A DNA stretch of 64,000 bases. Source: Psychrosphaera sp. B3R10. GTDB lineage: Bacteria > Pseudomonadota > Gammaproteobacteria > Enterobacterales > Alteromonadaceae. The position numbers and the translations under genes are program-made. The stretch is from the NCBI RefSeq assembly GCF_018861025.1, contig NZ_JAHKQH010000041.1:42553-106552 (forward strand). Direction: 5' to 3'. Positions 41,000 to 47,703 of the stretch are shown piece after piece. The notes beneath the pieces were generated by a model that did no database searches, was not told the origin of the DNA, and was given only the letters and a program-made list of their open reading frames with translations. Each line of letters opens with the position of its first letter. Positions within the stretch are counted from its first letter, which is position 1.

Positions 41000-41013
41000 T
41001 TAAAATCAATAAA

Positions 41014-41051
41014 GGCAAACAATGGGCAATGTAAATTCTGTGTTGTTTGCC
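41014..41051. repeat. Hairpin between convergent genes
   Basis: GGCAAACAA (41014-41022) and TTGTTTGCC (41043-41051) form a perfect 9-bp stem with a 20-base loop, between the acyl-CoA dehydrogenase and the kinase gene. No clear U tract; terminator function is uncertain. Confidence 0.4.
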
Positions 41052-41101
41052 AACTCTCCCTAACATGTTTCAAATACGCCAAGGTAAAGCCCTTGATAAA
41101 T

Positions 41102-42802
41102 CTATTTTGCTAACTGGATAACCAGCAAAATAAACAGTCCAAAACTTATTCCTTGCCAAAACATCACTGGATCTCGCTGAATCAGAGGTGGTTTAGTGCG
41201 TGACACATAGCTGGAACTTGGATGTTTAAGATCATGTATAAATTCAGACAATACTTGATATCGTTGTAGTGGGTCGATTTGCAAAGCTTTATACAAAGCA
41301 TCATCCACCCAAGCGGGTAATTCGGAGTCATCATCAATGAGAGTTTGGTAATTAAGCTTTTTCTGTGCAGAAAAGCTTTTTGCCTGCGCAATTTTGGTCC
41401 CATATGGAAATGAGCCTGAGAGCATTTGGTAAGTTATAACTGCTAAAGAATAGAGATCTGAGCATTGTGTACCGGCTTTCCCTAAGAAATACTCCGGTGC
41501 AGAATATCGCATAGTGCCTCGAATTTCGTTGTCGTATTCACTTACCCCGGCAATGTAGGTTGAACCAAAATCAATGATTTTCACGGTATTGTTACTATCA
41601 ATCATAATATTTTTTGGGCGAATATCCTGATGGATCATTTCTTGTCGGTGGAAGGCTTGTAACCCTTTTGCAATTTGTTCAACTATTGAACGAACTTGAA
41701 TTAACGAGGGTTTTGGGTTGTCTATCATCCATTGCTCAAGAGAAATGCCGTCGATGTATTCAGTCACTAAGTAAAGGTAATTACGTTTACGACTAGAGAG
41801 AACTGCTTTGGCAACGTATGGATTTGTTACACGTTTTGCTATCCACTCCTCTAGCATAAACTGCTCAAGGTAAGCGGTATCTGAGCGCAATTCAGTTGAA
41901 GGCGTTTTAATAACGACTAACTGTTCAGATTCAATATCTTTCGCCAAAAATACATGGCTACGGCTACTTATGTAGATTTCACGAATAATTTCAAAACCGT
42001 CAAATATCATTCGGGCGTTAAGTCTTGGCGGTAAAGGCAAACTCGTAAGTCGGTGAACTTCTTCTAATTCGTAATTCGGGACATGGTCCACTCTAACTAT
42101 TTGAATTGATAAGTTGTCATTACTGCCAGCCTCTAAACAGGCTGCCAAAATGTCGCCCGCCGCGTGTTGTAATGTAATGGAATGGGCAATTATCTTACGC
42201 ATTACTTCATGTTCGATAAATTCATATATGCCATCAGTTGCCAAAATGTATATGTCGCCTTTTTCCAGCGATTGAGTTTGGTAATCGATTTCTAAATTTT
42301 GATCTATCCCTAATCCTCGAGTTAAATAACTAACCTCGGTTGAAACGACCTTTCGGTGGTCTTCTGTCAATTGGTCTAGTTCGCCATTAGCAAGTCGATA
42401 AATTCGAGTATCGCCAGTATGGAGTATATGAGCAGTATTAGACTTTAAAATGAGCGCACTGAAGGTACAAACATACCCTTTGTCTTTATTAAATCGGTGA
42501 GGGCTATTTTGAGTTTGAGCACATAATAATGAATTAATTGACCTTATCACTTTCTGCGCTGATGATTTGACAGACCAAGAGTCAGACGTACAGTAGTAAT
42601 CTTCCAAAAATCCCAGAACGGCTGACTCACTTGCCTCTTGGCTAACATCGCTAGAACTTATGCCGTCAGCCATCGCTAAGACAATGCCTTTGGCGCTCAA
42701 TTGAGGTTCTTTAGGAACAACACTGCCAGCGAAGTCTTGGTTAACGGGTTTTAACCCCTTGTTTGTTGCATAACCAATAGTCACTGCGAGAGGTTGATTC
42801 AT
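41102..42802 (-). CDS. Fused PP2C phosphatase / Ser-Thr protein kinase, membrane anchored
   Basis: A 566-residue protein with a PP2C-type phosphatase domain (about 1-235: NQDFAG, MADGISSS with Asp46-Gly47, LHTGDTRIYRL, ILATDGIYE, DNLSIQIV), a protein-kinase domain (about 265-530), and one C-terminal helix (about 545-563, FWQGISFGLFILLVIQL) that fixes it in the inner membrane with both enzymes in the cytosol. In the kinase, Lys299 (VVIK), the loop HQDIRPKN at 391-398 and DFG at 411-413 are kept. HQD replaces HRD, so it is a non-RD kinase not needing loop phosphorylation. Relatives occur in Pseudomonas nitrate-assimilation operons. It follows the FNT gene after 70 bases and probably shares its mRNA. 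Confidence 0.88.
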   Translation of the reverse strand: MNQPLAVTIGYATNKGLKPVNQDFAGSVVPKEPQLSAKGIVLAMADGISSSDVSQEASESAVLGFLEDYYCTSDSWSVKSSAQKVIRSINSLLCAQTQNSPHRFNKDKGYVCTFSALILKSNTAHILHTGDTRIYRLANGELDQLTEDHRKVVSTEVSYLTRGLGIDQNLEIDYQTQSLEKGDIYILATDGIYEFIEHEVMRKIIAHSITLQHAAGDILAACLEAGSNDNLSIQIVRVDHVPNYELEEVHRLTSLPLPPRLNARMIFDGFEIIREIYISSRSHVFLAKDIESEQLVVIKTPSTELRSDTAYLEQFMLEEWIAKRVTNPYVAKAVLSSRKRNYLYLVTEYIDGISLEQWMIDNPKPSLIQVRSIVEQIAKGLQAFHRQEMIHQDIRPKNIMIDSNNTVKIIDFGSTYIAGVSEYDNEIRGTMRYSAPEYFLGKAGTQCSDLYSLAVITYQMLSGSFPYGTKIAQAKSFSAQKKLNYQTLIDDDSELPAWVDDALYKALQIDPLQRYQVLSEFIHDLKHPSSSYVSRTKPPLIQRDPVMFWQGISFGLFILLVIQLAK

Positions 42803-42872
42803 TGTCGGATTCCTAAAAAAAGACTCCGCTAGCTAGGCAGACGGAGTCGCAAAGATAAATTTTAGAAGCTAA

Positions 42873-43691
42873 TTAGCTCGCTTTCAATTTACGTTCCGGT
42901 GATGTTTTTACATGGGTAAGGTAAAGAGGCAAGCCAACTAACAATAGACCACCTGCAAGGTTACCTAATACCGTTGGAATTTCATTCCAAAGTAGGTAAT
43001 CGTATACGGTGAAGTCGCCACCCATGATCATAGAAAACGGGAACAAGAACATGTTCACGATTGAATGCTCAAAGCCCATAAAGAAGAACAGCATAACTGG
43101 CATCCACATTGCCGCCATTTTACTGCCAGCAGAGGTCGAAATCATCGCACCAACAACACCCATTGAAACCATCCAGTTACATAACATACCGCGGATAAAA
43201 ATTGTAATCCAACCGCCTATGCCATGTTCTTGGTAACCTACGGTTCTTGATTCACCAATTGAAGCGACTTTTGCTGCAATAGCCCCACCATCTGCTGAAT
43301 AGCCGTAAGTTAAAATAAAGGACATCAAAAATGCGGTTGTTAACGCCCCGCCGAAGTTACCGATAAAGACCAGTCCCCAGTTTCGCATTACGCCACCAAA
43401 AGTAACGCCGGGACGTTTATCAAATAAAGCCAGTGGTACTAATGTAAATACACCAGTTAGCAAGTCAAACTTCATTAAATAAAGCATGATGAAACCAACC
43501 GGAAACAGGCAGGCTCCTAAGATAGCGCTACCCGTTTTTGTTGCAACGGTAATTGCAAATATGGCCGCCAAACCTAAAATTGCTCCGGCCATAAAAGCCC
43601 TAATTATTGTGTCCTTCGTCGACATGTAAACTTTTTGTTCACCTGCGTCGACCATCTTTGTGACAAACTCACTTGGTTCGATATACGCCAT
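42873..43691 (-). CDS. Formate/nitrite transporter (FNT) family channel
   Basis: A 272-residue inner-membrane protein with six helices, the pentameric FocA/NirC fold. Visible family blocks are AFMAGAILGLAAIFAITVA, LMKFDLLTGVFTL, NWGLVFIGNFGGAL, ARGMLCNWMVSMG-like (IRGMLCNWMVSMGVVGA) and FFMGFEHSIVNMFLFP with the conserved central His. FNT channels pass small monovalent anions such as formate, nitrite or hydrosulfide. Here the neighbours are cyanase and a kinase-phosphatase, so nitrite, cyanate or bicarbonate are all possible; nothing in the sequence decides. A sigma54-type promoter lies about 60-75 bases upstream. Confidence 0.88.
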   Translation of the reverse strand: MAYIEPSEFVTKMVDAGEQKVYMSTKDTIIRAFMAGAILGLAAIFAITVATKTGSAILGACLFPVGFIMLYLMKFDLLTGVFTLVPLALFDKRPGVTFGGVMRNWGLVFIGNFGGALTTAFLMSFILTYGYSADGGAIAAKVASIGESRTVGYQEHGIGGWITIFIRGMLCNWMVSMGVVGAMISTSAGSKMAAMWMPVMLFFFMGFEHSIVNMFLFPFSMIMGGDFTVYDYLLWNEIPTVLGNLAGGLLLVGLPLYLTHVKTSPERKLKAS

Positions 43692-43750
43692 TATTATTCT
43701 CGCCTATTCTAATTTGAAAATTGTTGTGTATTATTTTTATTAACTTACAG

Positions 43751-43766
43751 AGCATAATGAATGCCA
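43751..43766 (-). promoter_or_regulatory. Sigma54 promoter of the FNT-kinase transcript
   Basis: On the minus strand TGGCA-TTCATTAT-GCT has GG and GC with the required 10-base spacing and keeps the TGGCA and TGC blocks. It lies 60 bases upstream of the FNT start codon. Confidence 0.6.
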
Positions 43767-43883
43767 GTAAGTTAACTTGTTGTAATTATTGTTTTTAAGG
43801 TTTTTTAGACTCGTTTTATTGCACTGTAAAAGAATGTGTTTGTTGTAAATATTGTCCTTCGAATGCAATTGCACCAAAATCGA

Positions 43884-44324
43884 TCACCAGGTTTTATAAG
43901 GTAAAAATTTACCGTTAAGAGTTAGGATCACCCTGTCACCCTTTGGGTTTTCTTCTTTATCTACTTCCATTGAAAAATCGATAGCGCTCATGATGCCATC
44001 GCCGAATTTTTCCTGAATAACTTCTTTTAGTGTGTCGCCATAAACGCCCACAACTTCGTAAAGTCGGTAGATTAAAGGATCTTGAGGAATTGACTTGTCC
44101 CACTCTTTGGTCGGGAAACTCATAAGAGAAGCTTTTGCGTCTTCAGGTAATCCTAAGAACTCTACAAGTTTAGTTGCGGTTTCAGGTGGGCAACTATTCA
44201 TGCCCAAACACGCTGAGGTAGTCCAAACATCTGATTTACCAATTGCATCGGCGATTGCCTGCCAAGTCAGGTCGCGTTCTTTTTTTATGGCAAATATTAA
44301 CTCTGTTACATCGATTCTTTTCAT
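43884..44324 (-). CDS. cynS: Cyanate hydratase (cyanase)
   Basis: Converts cyanate and bicarbonate to carbamate and CO2, releasing ammonia as nitrogen source or detoxifying cyanate. The 146-residue protein has an N-terminal helix-turn-helix-like domain (LTWQAIADAIGKSDVWTTSACLGMN) and the catalytic domain with DPLIYRLYEVVGVYGDTLK and GDGIMSAIDF. The three catalytic residues of E. coli cyanase, Arg96, Glu99 and Ser122, correspond here to Arg87, Glu90 and Ser113 with identical spacing. No CynT-type carbonic anhydrase or CynX is adjacent. A sigma54-type promoter with upstream repeats precedes it. Confidence 0.96.
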   Translation of the reverse strand: MKRIDVTELIFAIKKERDLTWQAIADAIGKSDVWTTSACLGMNSCPPETATKLVEFLGLPEDAKASLMSFPTKEWDKSIPQDPLIYRLYEVVGVYGDTLKEVIQEKFGDGIMSAIDFSMEVDKEENPKGDRVILTLNGKFLPYKTW

Positions 44325-44455
44325 ATTGATACCTTTGTCAGTTTGATTCTATTTGGGCTGAATTGAACCTAGGTGGTGCATTCATTGATCTGCGTAAGTC
44401 TGTTTAAGTCAAATTGCCGCAGAGCTGTTAAATAAATTAGTGCTTGTATCTGTTA

Positions 44456-44472
44456 TTGCTACTTTTGTGCCA
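44456..44472 (-). promoter_or_regulatory. Sigma54 promoter of cynS
   Basis: On the minus strand TGGCACAAAAGTAGCAA has TGGCAC and GCA with exact 10-base GG-GC spacing. The predicted start is near 44447, giving a leader of about 120 bases to cynS. Confidence 0.75.
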
Positions 44473-44539
44473 AACGATAGGTTGTTGTTAAGTTGTTGTA
44501 TATTAATAAGTTATGTTGTTTTTATGGCTCTTTTTTCAA

Positions 44540-44594
44540 CCACGAAATTTCGTTGGTAACGATTTTTCGTGGTTATTTCAACGAAATGTCGTTG
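44540..44594. promoter_or_regulatory. Three tandem activator sites upstream of cynS
   Basis: Three copies of an inverted repeat (C)AACGA-N4-TCGTTG: CCACGA-AATT-TCGTTG (44540-44555), TAACGA-TTTT-TCGTGG (44557-44572) and CAACGA-AATG-TCGTTG (44579-44594). They lie about 100-140 bases upstream of the predicted cynS transcription start, the usual enhancer position for a sigma54 activator, and next to the divergent activator gene. Confidence 0.7.
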
Positions 44595-44659
44595 TTGGCT
44601 TAAAGATTGAAGGTCTAATTACTAAATAGAAGAACACAACGATATCACCTACGTTTCGG

Positions 44660-46555
44660 ATGCGAGGGAATATGCTTTGCATCGAACGCGACTTGAGGTT
44701 TTTAATGCTAAATCACTTATTTCATAAAGCACCTACAGCAATGGTGTTGATAGAACCGCGGGAAAACCGTCTATTACGTGTCAATAAGCAAGCGGAGCTA
44801 ATGTTTGGCATCGATAAGCAGCAACTTGAACTATTAACGGCGACGCAGTTTTTCTCTGAGTGTTTAGATTTGTTTATGGTATTTACACAGCAAATTTTGG
44901 AGCAAGGGCAGGCGTGGTCTGATGAATTGACCATACAGGTAAGCGGCATATCTATCGGGCTTGAGATTAACGCAAACAAGCTTGATGACTGTATCTTATT
45001 GAGTTGTGAGCGACGCGCTGAAAACGATAAAAGACGTTTTATGTCGAAGCTTAATGAAAAATACCAAGCTGGTATGTTTCATTGGAGCCAGGACGAAACC
45101 GTATTTGAAGAAATCGAGCGCCAAAATCAATTGCTTTTAAAGGCTGTAGGTGACGGAATTTATGGTGTCGACACCAAAGGCAACGCAACGTTTGTTAATG
45201 CAGCTGCCGAAGCATTATTGGGCTGGACCAAAGAAGAGTTGATTGGCGTTAATATTCACGAGGCAATACATTATTCACACGCAGACGGTTCTCCTTATCA
45301 CACGCATCAATGTCCTATATTCGCAGCCTTCCATGACGGAGAGGTGCACAGTGTCGACAACGAGGTGTTTTGGTGTAAGTCCGGTCGGGCTATGCCAGTT
45401 GAATACATGAGTACTCCTGTAACTGAAAACGGTATTTTAGTTGGTGCGGTAGTGGTTTTTCGTGATATTACCCAGCGCAAAAAGACCGAGTCTGAACTGC
45501 GCAATGCATTGGAACAAGTGGACTCATTAAAAGCGCGCTTGGAAATGGAAAATGCGTATCTAAAAGAAGAGCTAAATGCAGACTTTAACCATCACCAAAT
45601 CATTGGTAACAGTTCTCAAGTTAAACATATGGTGCATCAAATCGAACTTGTAGGACCGACGGATGCAAATGTACTCATAACCGGTGAGTCAGGTACAGGT
45701 AAAGAGTTAATTGCCCGAGCCATACACGAAGTTAGCCAAAGAAAAGCGAGGCCACTAATCCGGGTTAACTGTGCTGCTATTCCAGCGGAACTGTTTGAAA
45801 GTGAATTTTTTGGGCATGTAAAAGGCGCGTTTTCAGGCGCGGTATCCGATCGATTAGGACGGTTTCAACTAGCCGATGGTGCGACAATTTTTCTAGATGA
45901 AGTTGGTGAAATTCCGCTACAGCTTCAAAGTAAACTATTGCGGGTTTTGCAGGAACAACAATTTGAACGGGTTGGCGAGTCTACCACTCGCAAAGTGGAT
46001 GTACGGGTTATCGCCGCAACAAACAAAGACCTAAAACAGCTTGTTGCTGAAAATAAATTTCGTGAAGATCTGTATTTTCGACTTAACGTATTTCCACTTC
46101 ATTCTCCGCCATTAAGAGAGCGTCGTGGCGATTTGGGATTATTGGTTAAACACTTTGTACGTAAGGCCTGTCGTCGATTTAACAAACCAACATTAAAAGT
46201 TTCACTCGCCCAGATGCAGCACGTTGAACAATATAATTGGCCTGGCAATATTCGTGAGCTTGAAAATATAATAGAGCGGCAGGTGATACTCGCAGTGAGT
46301 GATAAGTTAAATTTTGAATTTTTAAGCCAAGAGCCAACATCAAGAAGCGTAGCTAAAACCGCACTGTCGCTGCCTAACATTGTCAATGCGCTACAGCATA
46401 AGGAAATGGAAAAATTGAATATTGAGAAAGCACTTAGTCAAAGCGCGGGCAAAATATATGGCGATAACGGCGCTGCAGAATTATTAGGTTTAAAACCGAC
46501 GACATTGGCTTCGAAAATGAAGAAATATCAAATAGATCGCCATCTTTATTCATAA
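44660..46555 (+). CDS. Sigma54-dependent transcriptional activator with PAS domains
   Basis: A 631-residue enhancer-binding protein. Two PAS-like modules come first (about 20-120 and 155-275, the second [20 protein letters not shown]), then a short coiled coil, the AAA+ domain with GESGTGKE (342-349), GAFSGA (389-394) and [10 protein letters not shown], and a Fis-type HTH (about 590-627, [19 protein letters not shown]). In the sigma54-contact loop the usual GAFTGA Thr is Ser. No receiver domain is present, so a ligand or redox signal through PAS is likely. It is divergent from cynS, with three repeats between. The start may be at 44672, where GAGGG precedes an ATG closely. Confidence 0.9.
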
Positions 46556-46620
46556 CGACTTATTAGGCGACTCGTGAATATCAATAGTCACCTAAGCTAA
46601 TTAATAACGTTTGAACGCCA

Positions 46621-47703
46621 TTAACGTCCAATTTTAAAATCGAGTTGTACCCTTGAAGTTGCTTCGACAGGCTCGCCGTTTTCAAATTTAGGGGCGTATC
46701 GCCAATTCTCAACTGCGTCGATTGGTGCCCTTTGGAATTTTTTACTGCCGCCATATTCCGTCGAAATAGGGTCTTTTACAAAGCCATTTGCATCTATCAC
46801 AAATTCAACAATAGCGTAGCCGTCTTTACGAGAGCGCACTGCTGACTGAGGGTATTGAGGTTGCGTTCGGTATAGTGGCTTTGGCAACTGGTTATCATCC
46901 CAAGGCGTCATTTGGCCAATTGCTTTACAATGATTAGTCGCCTGATCACTTTCACCAATTTTCTCATATGCTTTAACTAAAACAGCATGGGTGGTAAGTT
47001 CTAAAGGGTGAGTCGGGCCATCTAAATTGTAAAAAACATCTAAGTTTTTTGATAACATTGCTATGGCTTTGTCAGTTTTCCCCGTCGCAATATAGTAGTT
47101 TCCGGTGTAATAATTAGAATATACAAGTTGTCTTTCATTCGCAGGTAAGTGTTTACTCAAATAGTCATTTGCTTCGATAAGGACTCTGCTTTTTGGCGAA
47201 CCTAAAGAGAGTAATTCGGCGCCAATATCCGCTTGAGTCTTTGCAACAAGTAAAGGTTTAGAGTCTTTATGGCTATCCAATAAAGATAGTGCCTTTTGGT
47301 AATACTTTATTTGTTTATTTTTGCTTTTCCGCTGATATGACTTAGCAACTAATATGTAAAGGTCAACGATTGCAAGGCTGTCTTCTTTATACTCTTCTAA
47401 ATAAACATCTATATAAGGAAGCAGAAGTTCATTTGCAAGTTTGAATTCCTTATTATCTATATAGGCGGTTGCCAAATTGGACGCCAAATTTGCAGTATTT
47501 ACACTATTTGAACCAAATAAGCGCTTTCCGGTGTTATAGGCGTTAAGCCCAGTACGAATGGTTAACTCAATATCTTCAGATTCAAGCGCATTTTTAAACG
47601 CATCATAGGCGATATTAAAACTGCGCTTTAACGCGTTATCTTCTGCAGCTAGAGCGCAGGTTGACATTAAAAAGGCGACAAATAAAAATCCAATTCTAGG
47701 CAT
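46621..47703 (-). CDS. TPR protein with C-terminal TonB domain
   Basis: A 360-residue secreted protein: signal peptide (about 1-20, ending CALAA), then some 230 residues of helical repeats in tetratricopeptide style (LASNLATAYIDNKEFKLANELLLPY, YYTGNYYIATGKTDKAIAMLSKNL), then a TonB-C domain (about 265-358) with RTQPQYPQSAVRSRKDGYAIVEFVID and FQRAPIDAVENWRYAP. Classic TonB has an uncleaved anchor and Pro-rich spacer; here neither is seen, so it may not be a true energy transducer. ATG at 47703 follows AGGGA; a longer frame to 47766 lacks a ribosome site. Function unknown; neighbour is a secreted beta-amylase. Confidence 0.8.
   Translation of the reverse strand: MPRIGFLFVAFLMSTCALAAEDNALKRSFNIAYDAFKNALESEDIELTIRTGLNAYNTGKRLFGSNSVNTANLASNLATAYIDNKEFKLANELLLPYIDVYLEEYKEDSLAIVDLYILVAKSYQRKSKNKQIKYYQKALSLLDSHKDSKPLLVAKTQADIGAELLSLGSPKSRVLIEANDYLSKHLPANERQLVYSNYYTGNYYIATGKTDKAIAMLSKNLDVFYNLDGPTHPLELTTHAVLVKAYEKIGESDQATNHCKAIGQMTPWDDNQLPKPLYRTQPQYPQSAVRSRKDGYAIVEFVIDANGFVKDPISTEYGGSKKFQRAPIDAVENWRYAPKFENGEPVEATSRVQLDFKIGR

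What the first reader, a model, noticed from the sequence alone, without database searches (positions are those of the whole stretch)
44325..44659. Cyanase under a sigma54 promoter with three tandem activator sites
The sequence between cynS and the divergent PAS-AAA+-Fis activator shows TGGCACAAAAGTAGCAA with exact -24/-12 spacing toward cynS, and three inverted repeats of form AACGA-N4-TCGTTG at about -100 to -140. Known cyanase control uses CynR (LysR) in enterics or NtcA in cyanobacteria. Sigma54 control through a dedicated PAS-type activator is not something I know to be described, and it would make cyanate use a directly sensed trait.
Basis: partly seen in the sequence, partly recalled or inferred. 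Interest (0 to 1): 0.75.

Follow-up and report, generated by a model that had tools for sequence, protein, structure and literature searches.

The report
Cyanase switch with three activator sites
In a relative of Alteromonas, the gene for the cyanate-destroying enzyme cyanase faces an activator gene across three evenly built DNA repeats and a sigma-54-type promoter that are conserved in relatives and likely switch cyanate use on; this kind of activator was already known, but the repeats were not described in the papers we searched.

Summary
Three ACGA-N4-TCGT sites (44542-44592) and a -24/-12 element (44458-44472, minus) lie between cynS and a divergent PAS-PAS-AAA+-Fis activator. The novelty claim does not hold: Pseudomonas pseudoalcaligenes CynF is a published sigma54-dependent activator, divergent from cynABDS and required for cyanase (PMC6627978). 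The window's activator is its genome's best match to a P. mendocina CynF-type regulator. New here is the architecture. The triplet (spacers 9-11 and 5) recurs in at least 118 public stretches from many phyla; a related activator was found in 109 and cyn genes lead the target side in 70. A sigma54-like element follows at helically phased distances (about 48, 59, 70, 83 bp; window 69). Among relatives found by cyanase alone, the triplet is present in 4 of 4 loci with the activator and 0 of 10 without. The window has an FNT channel gene where most CynF operons found carry the ABC transporter CynABD; the transporter type changes at least three times on the activator tree. The channel is predicted to carry cyanate; nitrite or bicarbonate is not excluded. 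A terminator precedes the phosphatase/kinase gene. The triplet is not universal: 3 of 9 CynA operons in an independent gammaproteobacterial sample.

The parts
44542..44553 (.). activator site nearest the cynS promoter (proximal), ACGA-N4-TCGT
   Evidence: aligned in 5 loci
44559..44570 (.). middle activator site, 5 bp from the proximal site
44581..44592 (.). distal activator site, 10 bp from the middle site
44458..44472 (-). predicted sigma54 -24/-12 element toward cynS, 69 bp from the triplet
43884..44324 (-). cynS, cyanase
42873..43691 (-). FNT-family anion channel; predicted cyanate uptake
   Evidence: PF01226 214.5 bits; nearest solved relative LCIA; stands where other CynF operons have CynABD
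42815..42848 (-). predicted intrinsic terminator (hairpin and seven T) between the FNT gene and the phosphatase/kinase gene
   Evidence: -15.5 kcal/mol, z -2.67; strong hairpin with T-rich tail in 3 of 3 relatives scanned
41102..42802 (-). PP2C phosphatase / Ser-Thr kinase fusion
   Evidence: beside or near the FNT gene in relatives
44660..46555 (+). CynF-type activator: PAS-PAS-AAA+(sigma54)-Fis HTH
44596..44611 (+). sigma54-like element with degenerate -12, pointing to the activator gene, 3 bp from the distal site; role unknown

Best explanation
The divergent activator, a CynF-type regulator, likely binds the three ACGA-N4-TCGT sites as three dimers, assembles there into a hexamer and opens a predicted sigma54 promoter 69 bp away that would drive cynS and the FNT channel gene when cyanate is present. 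Shown: the genes, the sites and their conserved geometry, the helical phasing of the sigma54-like element, the co-occurrence of sites and activator, the best-in-genome match to a Pseudomonas CynF-type protein, and a terminator-like hairpin after the FNT gene. Inferred: binding by this protein, hexamer loading (by analogy with NorR), sensing through the conserved second PAS domain, and cyanate as the substrate of the FNT channel. The phosphatase/kinase gene is probably reached by read-through or from its own promoter.
For: Triplet: 1 in the window, 0 in 100 shuffles; the only place in the 4.7 Mb assembly with two such sites 4-24 bp apart. Sites and a TGGCA...GC element align in the window and in 4 of 4 relatives that a cynS search found to carry the activator; 7 of 7 other family genomes found by the triplet pattern, including 2 of those 4, also have activator, cynS and FNT. 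With mismatches counted on both strands, the best triplet in 10 cynS loci without the activator has 7-9 of 24 mismatches, against 0-1 in 9 loci with it, 5 of which were found by the pattern itself. In 118 public stretches a sigma54-like element of score 12 or more lies on the proximal side in 109 (background 127 of 1180 random 260-base stretches); within 40-95 bp, 88 distinct elements show a period of about 11.6 bp (0 of 2000 uniform draws as strong). A P. mendocina CynF-type protein hits the window activator at 673 bits, next best 260. CynF is required for cyanase in P. pseudoalcaligenes. rpoN is present. The HTH recognition helix resembles E. coli FhlA's, whose published consensus CATTTCGTACGAAATG is made of TTTCGT and ACGAAA (PMC4987338). 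FNT and ABC alternate on the activator tree with at least three changes.
Against: No expression or binding data for this organism. The promoter element alone is not beyond chance. In an independent sample of 229 class genomes only 3 of 9 CynA operons had a triplet with 5 or fewer of 24 mismatches. In one relative (L019) the middle site has a mismatch and the promoter lies at 79 bp, off the main phases. The FNT-kinase pair also stands near nirB and nirD in L208, so nitrite is possible. The 192-bp gap between cynS and the FNT gene leaves room for a second promoter. My patterns found no FhlA-like paired site in the E. coli hycA-hypA region.
Confidence: 0.77

Rival explanations
1. Same switch, but the FNT protein carries nitrite or bicarbonate, not cyanate: bicarbonate would feed cyanase as co-substrate, nitrite would be a second nitrogen source.
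For: Nearest solved relative is LCIA, a low-CO2-inducible FNT protein. A 71% identical FNT with the kinase stands a few kb from nirB, nirD and a siroheme methyltransferase gene in L208. The window's genome has nirB. A cyanobacterial FNT nitrite transporter was not inhibited by cyanate (PMC4390861, passages). Cyanase is bicarbonate-dependent (PMC11049912, passage).
Against: 14 of 16 cynS genomes but 5 of 82 others have the close FNT type (Fisher 4e-11, not corrected for kinship). FNT and CynABD do not occur together in any of the 118 stretches as held, and the transporter type changes at least three times under one regulator type. In the window's genome nirB lies on another contig, with an ABC system of the nitrate/CynA type beside it and no FNT.
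Confidence: 0.35
2. The triplet mainly serves autoregulation of the activator gene, and cynS is transcribed from a sigma70-type promoter.
For: A sigma54-like element with degenerate -12 points to the activator gene next to the distal site in 27 of 46 gammaproteobacterial loci. Sigma70-like matches exist near cynS.
Against: The sigma54-like element lies on the cyn or target side in 109 of 118 loci; the element toward the activator is absent in 38 of 38 alphaproteobacterial loci; sigma70-like matches in 42700-44760 are little more than in shuffles (7 against mean 4.8, sd 2.1); CynF is required for cyanase in P. pseudoalcaligenes.
Confidence: 0.1

Closest known systems
CynF / cynFABDS of Pseudomonas pseudoalcaligenes CECT5344 (PMC6627978)
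   Same: Fis-type sigma54 activator divergent from the cyn operon; sigma54 site before the first cyn gene; the P. mendocina relative is 51-52% identical to the window activator over nearly its length
   Different: The window operon has an FNT channel gene instead of the ABC transporter genes cynABD, and a phosphatase/kinase gene follows; the paper's main text names no activator sites (its supplement was not readable here)
NorR of E. coli and Salmonella at norVW (PMC4987338, PMC2941729)
   Same: Three enhancer sites, all required, that scaffold the hexamer
   Different: NorR senses NO by a GAF domain and its sites are GT-N7-AC; the NCBIfam NorR cut-off is not met by the window activator
FhlA of E. 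coli
   Same: Recognition helix of the form LKxTTLxS(K/R)M; half-sites TTTCGT/ACGAAA in the published consensus
   Different: Half-sites face the other way in FhlA's consensus; GAF, not PAS, sensor (recalled); the NCBIfam FhlA cut-off is not met (367.7 of 830 bits)
FNT family beside cynS in nitrifiers (PMC10753782, citing Spang 2012)
   Same: Proposal that an FNT protein next to cynS carries cyanate
   Different: There from adjacency; here the FNT gene sits under a CynF-type regulator where related loci have cynABD

Membership tests
CynF-type cyanate regulators | AAA+ sigma54-interaction domain and Fis-type HTH | tested here: met
   Sigma54_activat 242 bits, HTH_8 23.0 bits against cut-off 22
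CynF-type cyanate regulators | best match in the genome to a CynF-type protein over its length | tested here: met
   673 bits over query residues 15-629 of 643, next best 260; query from P. mendocina EF27, not from CECT5344 itself
CynF-type cyanate regulators | divergent from the cyn structural genes with a sigma54 element before the first | tested here: met
CynF-type cyanate regulators | operon includes cynABD | tested here: not met
   FNT instead; best CynA-like hits in the genome 30-35% identical, on the contig with nirB
CynF-type cyanate regulators | required for cyanase expression on cyanate | not testable with these tools
   needs a mutant
NorR-like three-site enhancer | all three sites needed for activation | not testable with these tools
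   three sites present and conserved; need not shown
NorR | meets the NCBIfam NorR equivalog cut-off | tested here: not met
   364.5 of 476 bits
FhlA | meets the NCBIfam FhlA equivalog cut-off | tested here: not met
   367.7 of 830 bits
FNT channels | PF01226 over cut-off | tested here: met
   214.5 against 34.6 bits; FocA and NirC equivalog cut-offs not met (125.7 of 290.1 and 43.4 of 293 bits)

The most novel reading that the evidence does not exclude
The triplet is a portable, phase-locked loading dock for a bEBP hexamer: one DNA-binding module recognises it from Proteobacteria to Planctomycetes, Acidobacteria and Bacteroidota, while sensor domains (PAS, GAF, cNMP) and target genes are exchanged around it. 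Cyanate (cyn) and nitrile/cyanide (nit1C) assimilation share it, and in the window it drives a cyanate channel of the FNT family that has repeatedly replaced the ABC transporter.
Probability: 0.5. Interest if true: 0.66.

Novelty: new variant of a known kind. Interest (0 to 1): 0.52.

Why it matters
CynF was known to be needed for cyanase, but the main text of that paper names no activator sites. The triplet gives a concrete target for binding and a searchable signature that finds cyanate regulons without annotation. Its fixed spacers and helical phasing make it a natural test of how enhancer sites load a bEBP hexamer. The exchange of CynABD and an FNT channel under one regulator type makes the open question of an FNT cyanate transporter directly testable.

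Tried and rejected
Rejected: that sigma54 control of cyanase is new. Rejected: that the promoter hexamers alone are significant. Doubted: that the phosphatase/kinase is simply the third gene of one transcript; a hairpin with a T-rich tail precedes it in the window and in L018, L019 and L168, the 3 relatives scanned. Rejected: a universal triplet in cyn operons. The first null was not clean, because its 60 random stretches came from a pool that held triplet loci (4 had 0 mismatches, 9 had 5 or fewer); I replaced it with dinucleotide shuffles. The loose one-strand pair pattern missed L019; one search repeats the comparison on both strands. No Rfam family reached its threshold in 41000-47000. No FhlA-like paired site was found in the E. 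coli hycA-hypA region with my simple patterns, so the FhlA link rests on the published consensus and the helix.

Papers: PMC6627978, abstract, sections 2.1 and 2.3 and passages; passages only of PMC10753782, PMC4390861, PMC12054182, PMC4987338, PMC12316311, PMC13207237, PMC2941729 and PMC11049912; all others in the search answers as listings or abstract starts. The 2008 paper on the P. pseudoalcaligenes cyanase is not held and is known to me by recall and by citation in PMC6627978. Searches behind the statement that the sites were not described in the papers searched: and inside PMC6627978; its supplement, which shows the promoter, could not be read.

Full report
Observation. Between cynS (43884-44324, minus) and a divergent activator gene (44660-46555, plus) lie three ACGA-N4-TCGT sites at 44542-44553, 44559-44570 and 44581-44592, and a -24/-12 element at 44472-44458 on the minus strand. 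The triplet has no match in 100 dinucleotide shuffles and is the only place in the whole 4.7 Mb assembly with two such sites 4-24 bp apart. The promoter pattern alone is unremarkable (expected 0.55 per window). The activator has two PAS domains, a sigma54-interaction AAA+ domain, its lid and a Fis-type HTH. The genome has one rpoN match.

Conservation near home. A search of 98 relatives, the window's genome included, gave 16 with cyanase. I fetched 14 of the 15 others; the split hit in G074 was left out. In these 14 the FNT gene is near cynS in 13, the phosphatase/kinase in 11, the activator in 4 (in L020 only the 53% hit is counted as the kinase; L025 is a 4.3 kb contig). In all four activator loci the three sites, with spacers 9-11 and 5, and a TGGCA...GC element align with the window; L018 and L019 have one mismatch in one site each. 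A pattern scan of 395 family genomes found the strict triplet in 8, the window included, with no hit of the reversed control in the table; the other seven (L025 and L029 among them) all have activator, cynS and FNT, and 3 of 7 the kinase in the stretch held. Counting mismatches on both strands, the best triplet in the 10 cynS loci without the activator has 7-9 of 24 mismatches, against 0-1 in the nine loci with it; four of those nine were found by cynS, the other five by the pattern itself. Nine of the ten loci without the activator have the FNT gene. The sites follow the activator, not cyanase.

Wider distribution. An activator homologous to the window's is found in 109; of the other nine, eight hold under 400 bases on that side and one (L125) is unexplained. 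The first of the tested genes on the target side is cynA in 58, cynS in 11 and FNT in 1; 38 show none of them although at least 400 bases are held, and 10 are cut shorter than that. Three stretches (L037, L065, L094) repeat family genomes counted above. A sigma54-like element scoring 12 or more of 15.1 lies on the side of the shorter spacer in 109 of 118, against 127 of 1180 random 260-base stretches of the same loci. Its distance from the triplet clusters at about 48, 59, 70 and 83 bp; within 40-95 bp, with each distinct element counted once (88), the best period is 11.6 bp and none of 2000 uniform draws was as periodic (kinship not corrected otherwise).

A less favourable, independent sample. 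In 229 class genomes (250 asked) searched with P. mendocina CynA, nine loci carry a CynA of 56% identity or more. A triplet with 5 or fewer of 24 mismatches lies in the 1.5 kb before cynA in 3 of 9 (L213 with 1, L212 with 4, L216 with 3 on one strand and 5 on the other); none of 60 shuffles of each of the nine reached 5. The 11 NrtA-like loci have 6 or more. A match to the window activator is near in 8 of 9 CynA loci, in three of them (L217, L218, L219) only from the region just before the AAA+ domain onward. The strict triplet is therefore one common state of cyn operons, not a rule.

What the activator is. A P. mendocina protein (L095), which stands divergent from cynA-cynB-cynD-cynS as CynF does in P. 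pseudoalcaligenes, matches the window activator at 673 bits and the next activator of the genome at 260. In P. pseudoalcaligenes CynF is sigma54-type, divergent from cynABDS, and a CynF mutant lacks cyanase and does not grow on cyanate (PMC6627978). cynS expression was reduced in an RpoN study of Bradyrhizobium (PMC13207237, passages), a genus in which the triplet precedes cynA. The HTH helix reads LKPTTLASKM in the window and LKRTTLLSRM in E. coli FhlA, whose published consensus CATTTCGTACGAAATG (PMC4987338) is made of the same half-sites in the opposite order. Three sites that scaffold a hexamer are established for NorR (PMC2941729 and PMC4987338, passages). In 55 cyn-linked activators the second PAS region (146-280) is far more conserved than the first (16-145): 53 against 8 columns at 90% or more, with invariant H200, H204 and C218-P-I. 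The same residues stand in the activator beside the nitrilase cluster (L130), so they are not cyanate-specific. Three cyn-linked activators (L087, L117, L124) show no match to the first PAS domain. I infer that the second PAS domain is the likelier common sensor or relay; direct cyanate binding is untested.

The FNT gene. It is the only FNT gene of the genome, and close FNT proteins (68% identity or more) occur in 14 of 16 cynS genomes and 5 of 82 others (Fisher 4e-11, not corrected for kinship). On a tree of 82 activators plus FhlA (quick method, SH-aLRT support only, with long branches and odd letter make-up flagged for several rows, among them the Alteromonadaceae ones), FNT-bearing loci fall at three places: the ten Alteromonadaceae loci, Vreelandella titanicae inside an ABC-bearing Halomonadaceae group, and Skermanella beside two ABC-bearing Azospirillaceae. 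Left out of the tree: activators whose match was shorter than 330 residues or began after residue 170, the nine loci without one, and L065 as a duplicate of L166; loci with unknown transporter are in the tree but not in the count of changes (three, direction not set). No locus of the 118 shows both transporters, though many stretches are cut. This favours cyanate uptake. Against it: the nearest solved relative is LCIA; in L208 the FNT-kinase pair stands a few kb from nirB (cut by the edge), nirD and a siroheme gene; and a cyanobacterial FNT nitrite transporter ignored cyanate (PMC4390861). That FNT proteins beside cynS carry cyanate had been proposed for nitrifiers (PMC10753782). In P. pseudoalcaligenes a further transporter, perhaps for nitrate/nitrite, is thought to take up cyanate when CynABD is lost.

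Transcript. Between the FNT gene and the phosphatase/kinase gene the window has a GACTCCG...CGGAGTC hairpin followed by seven T (-15.5 kcal/mol, z -2.67); strong hairpins with T-rich tails stand in the same gap in L018, L019 and L168, and none of comparable strength was found between cynS and the FNT gene in six loci. The likely induced transcript is cynS-FNT, with the kinase gene reached by read-through or from its own promoter.

Verdict. A real, conserved sigma54 enhancer-promoter unit of a known regulator type, with a newly described site architecture and a variant operon.

Noticed in passing
44596-44611 (+); same place in relatives: TGGC-N7-TTG element, sigma54-like but with the -12 GC replaced, pointing to the activator gene 3-6 bp from the distal site: 27 of 46 gammaproteobacterial loci and 4 of 5 of the window and relatives, 0 of 38 alphaproteobacterial loci.
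   Followed up: partly
L130 (Stutzerimonas stutzeri 24a75): Triplet and a two-PAS activator before a nit1C-type cluster (MSMEG_0572 family, Nit6803 nitrilase, radical SAM, GNAT, AIR synthase-like): the cyanide/nitrile pathway appears to use the same enhancer.
   Followed up: partly
L057, L126, L085, L040: Planctomycetes, Acidobacteria and others: the triplet beside an activator (GAF-type in L057) and carboxymuconolactone-decarboxylase-like, alpha/beta hydrolase or isochorismatase genes (only L057 and L126 proteins were scanned, the rest read by eye).
   Followed up: partly
L103: In a Flavobacteriia genome the triplet follows a cNMP-binding activator gene and precedes an OsmC-like gene and a pyruvate:ferredoxin oxidoreductase gene.
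   Followed up: partly
L025, L029, L169: The cynS here is only about 50% identical to the window's while FNT is 93-95% and the activator 63-67% identical: cynS seems to have been exchanged inside a kept module.
   Followed up: no
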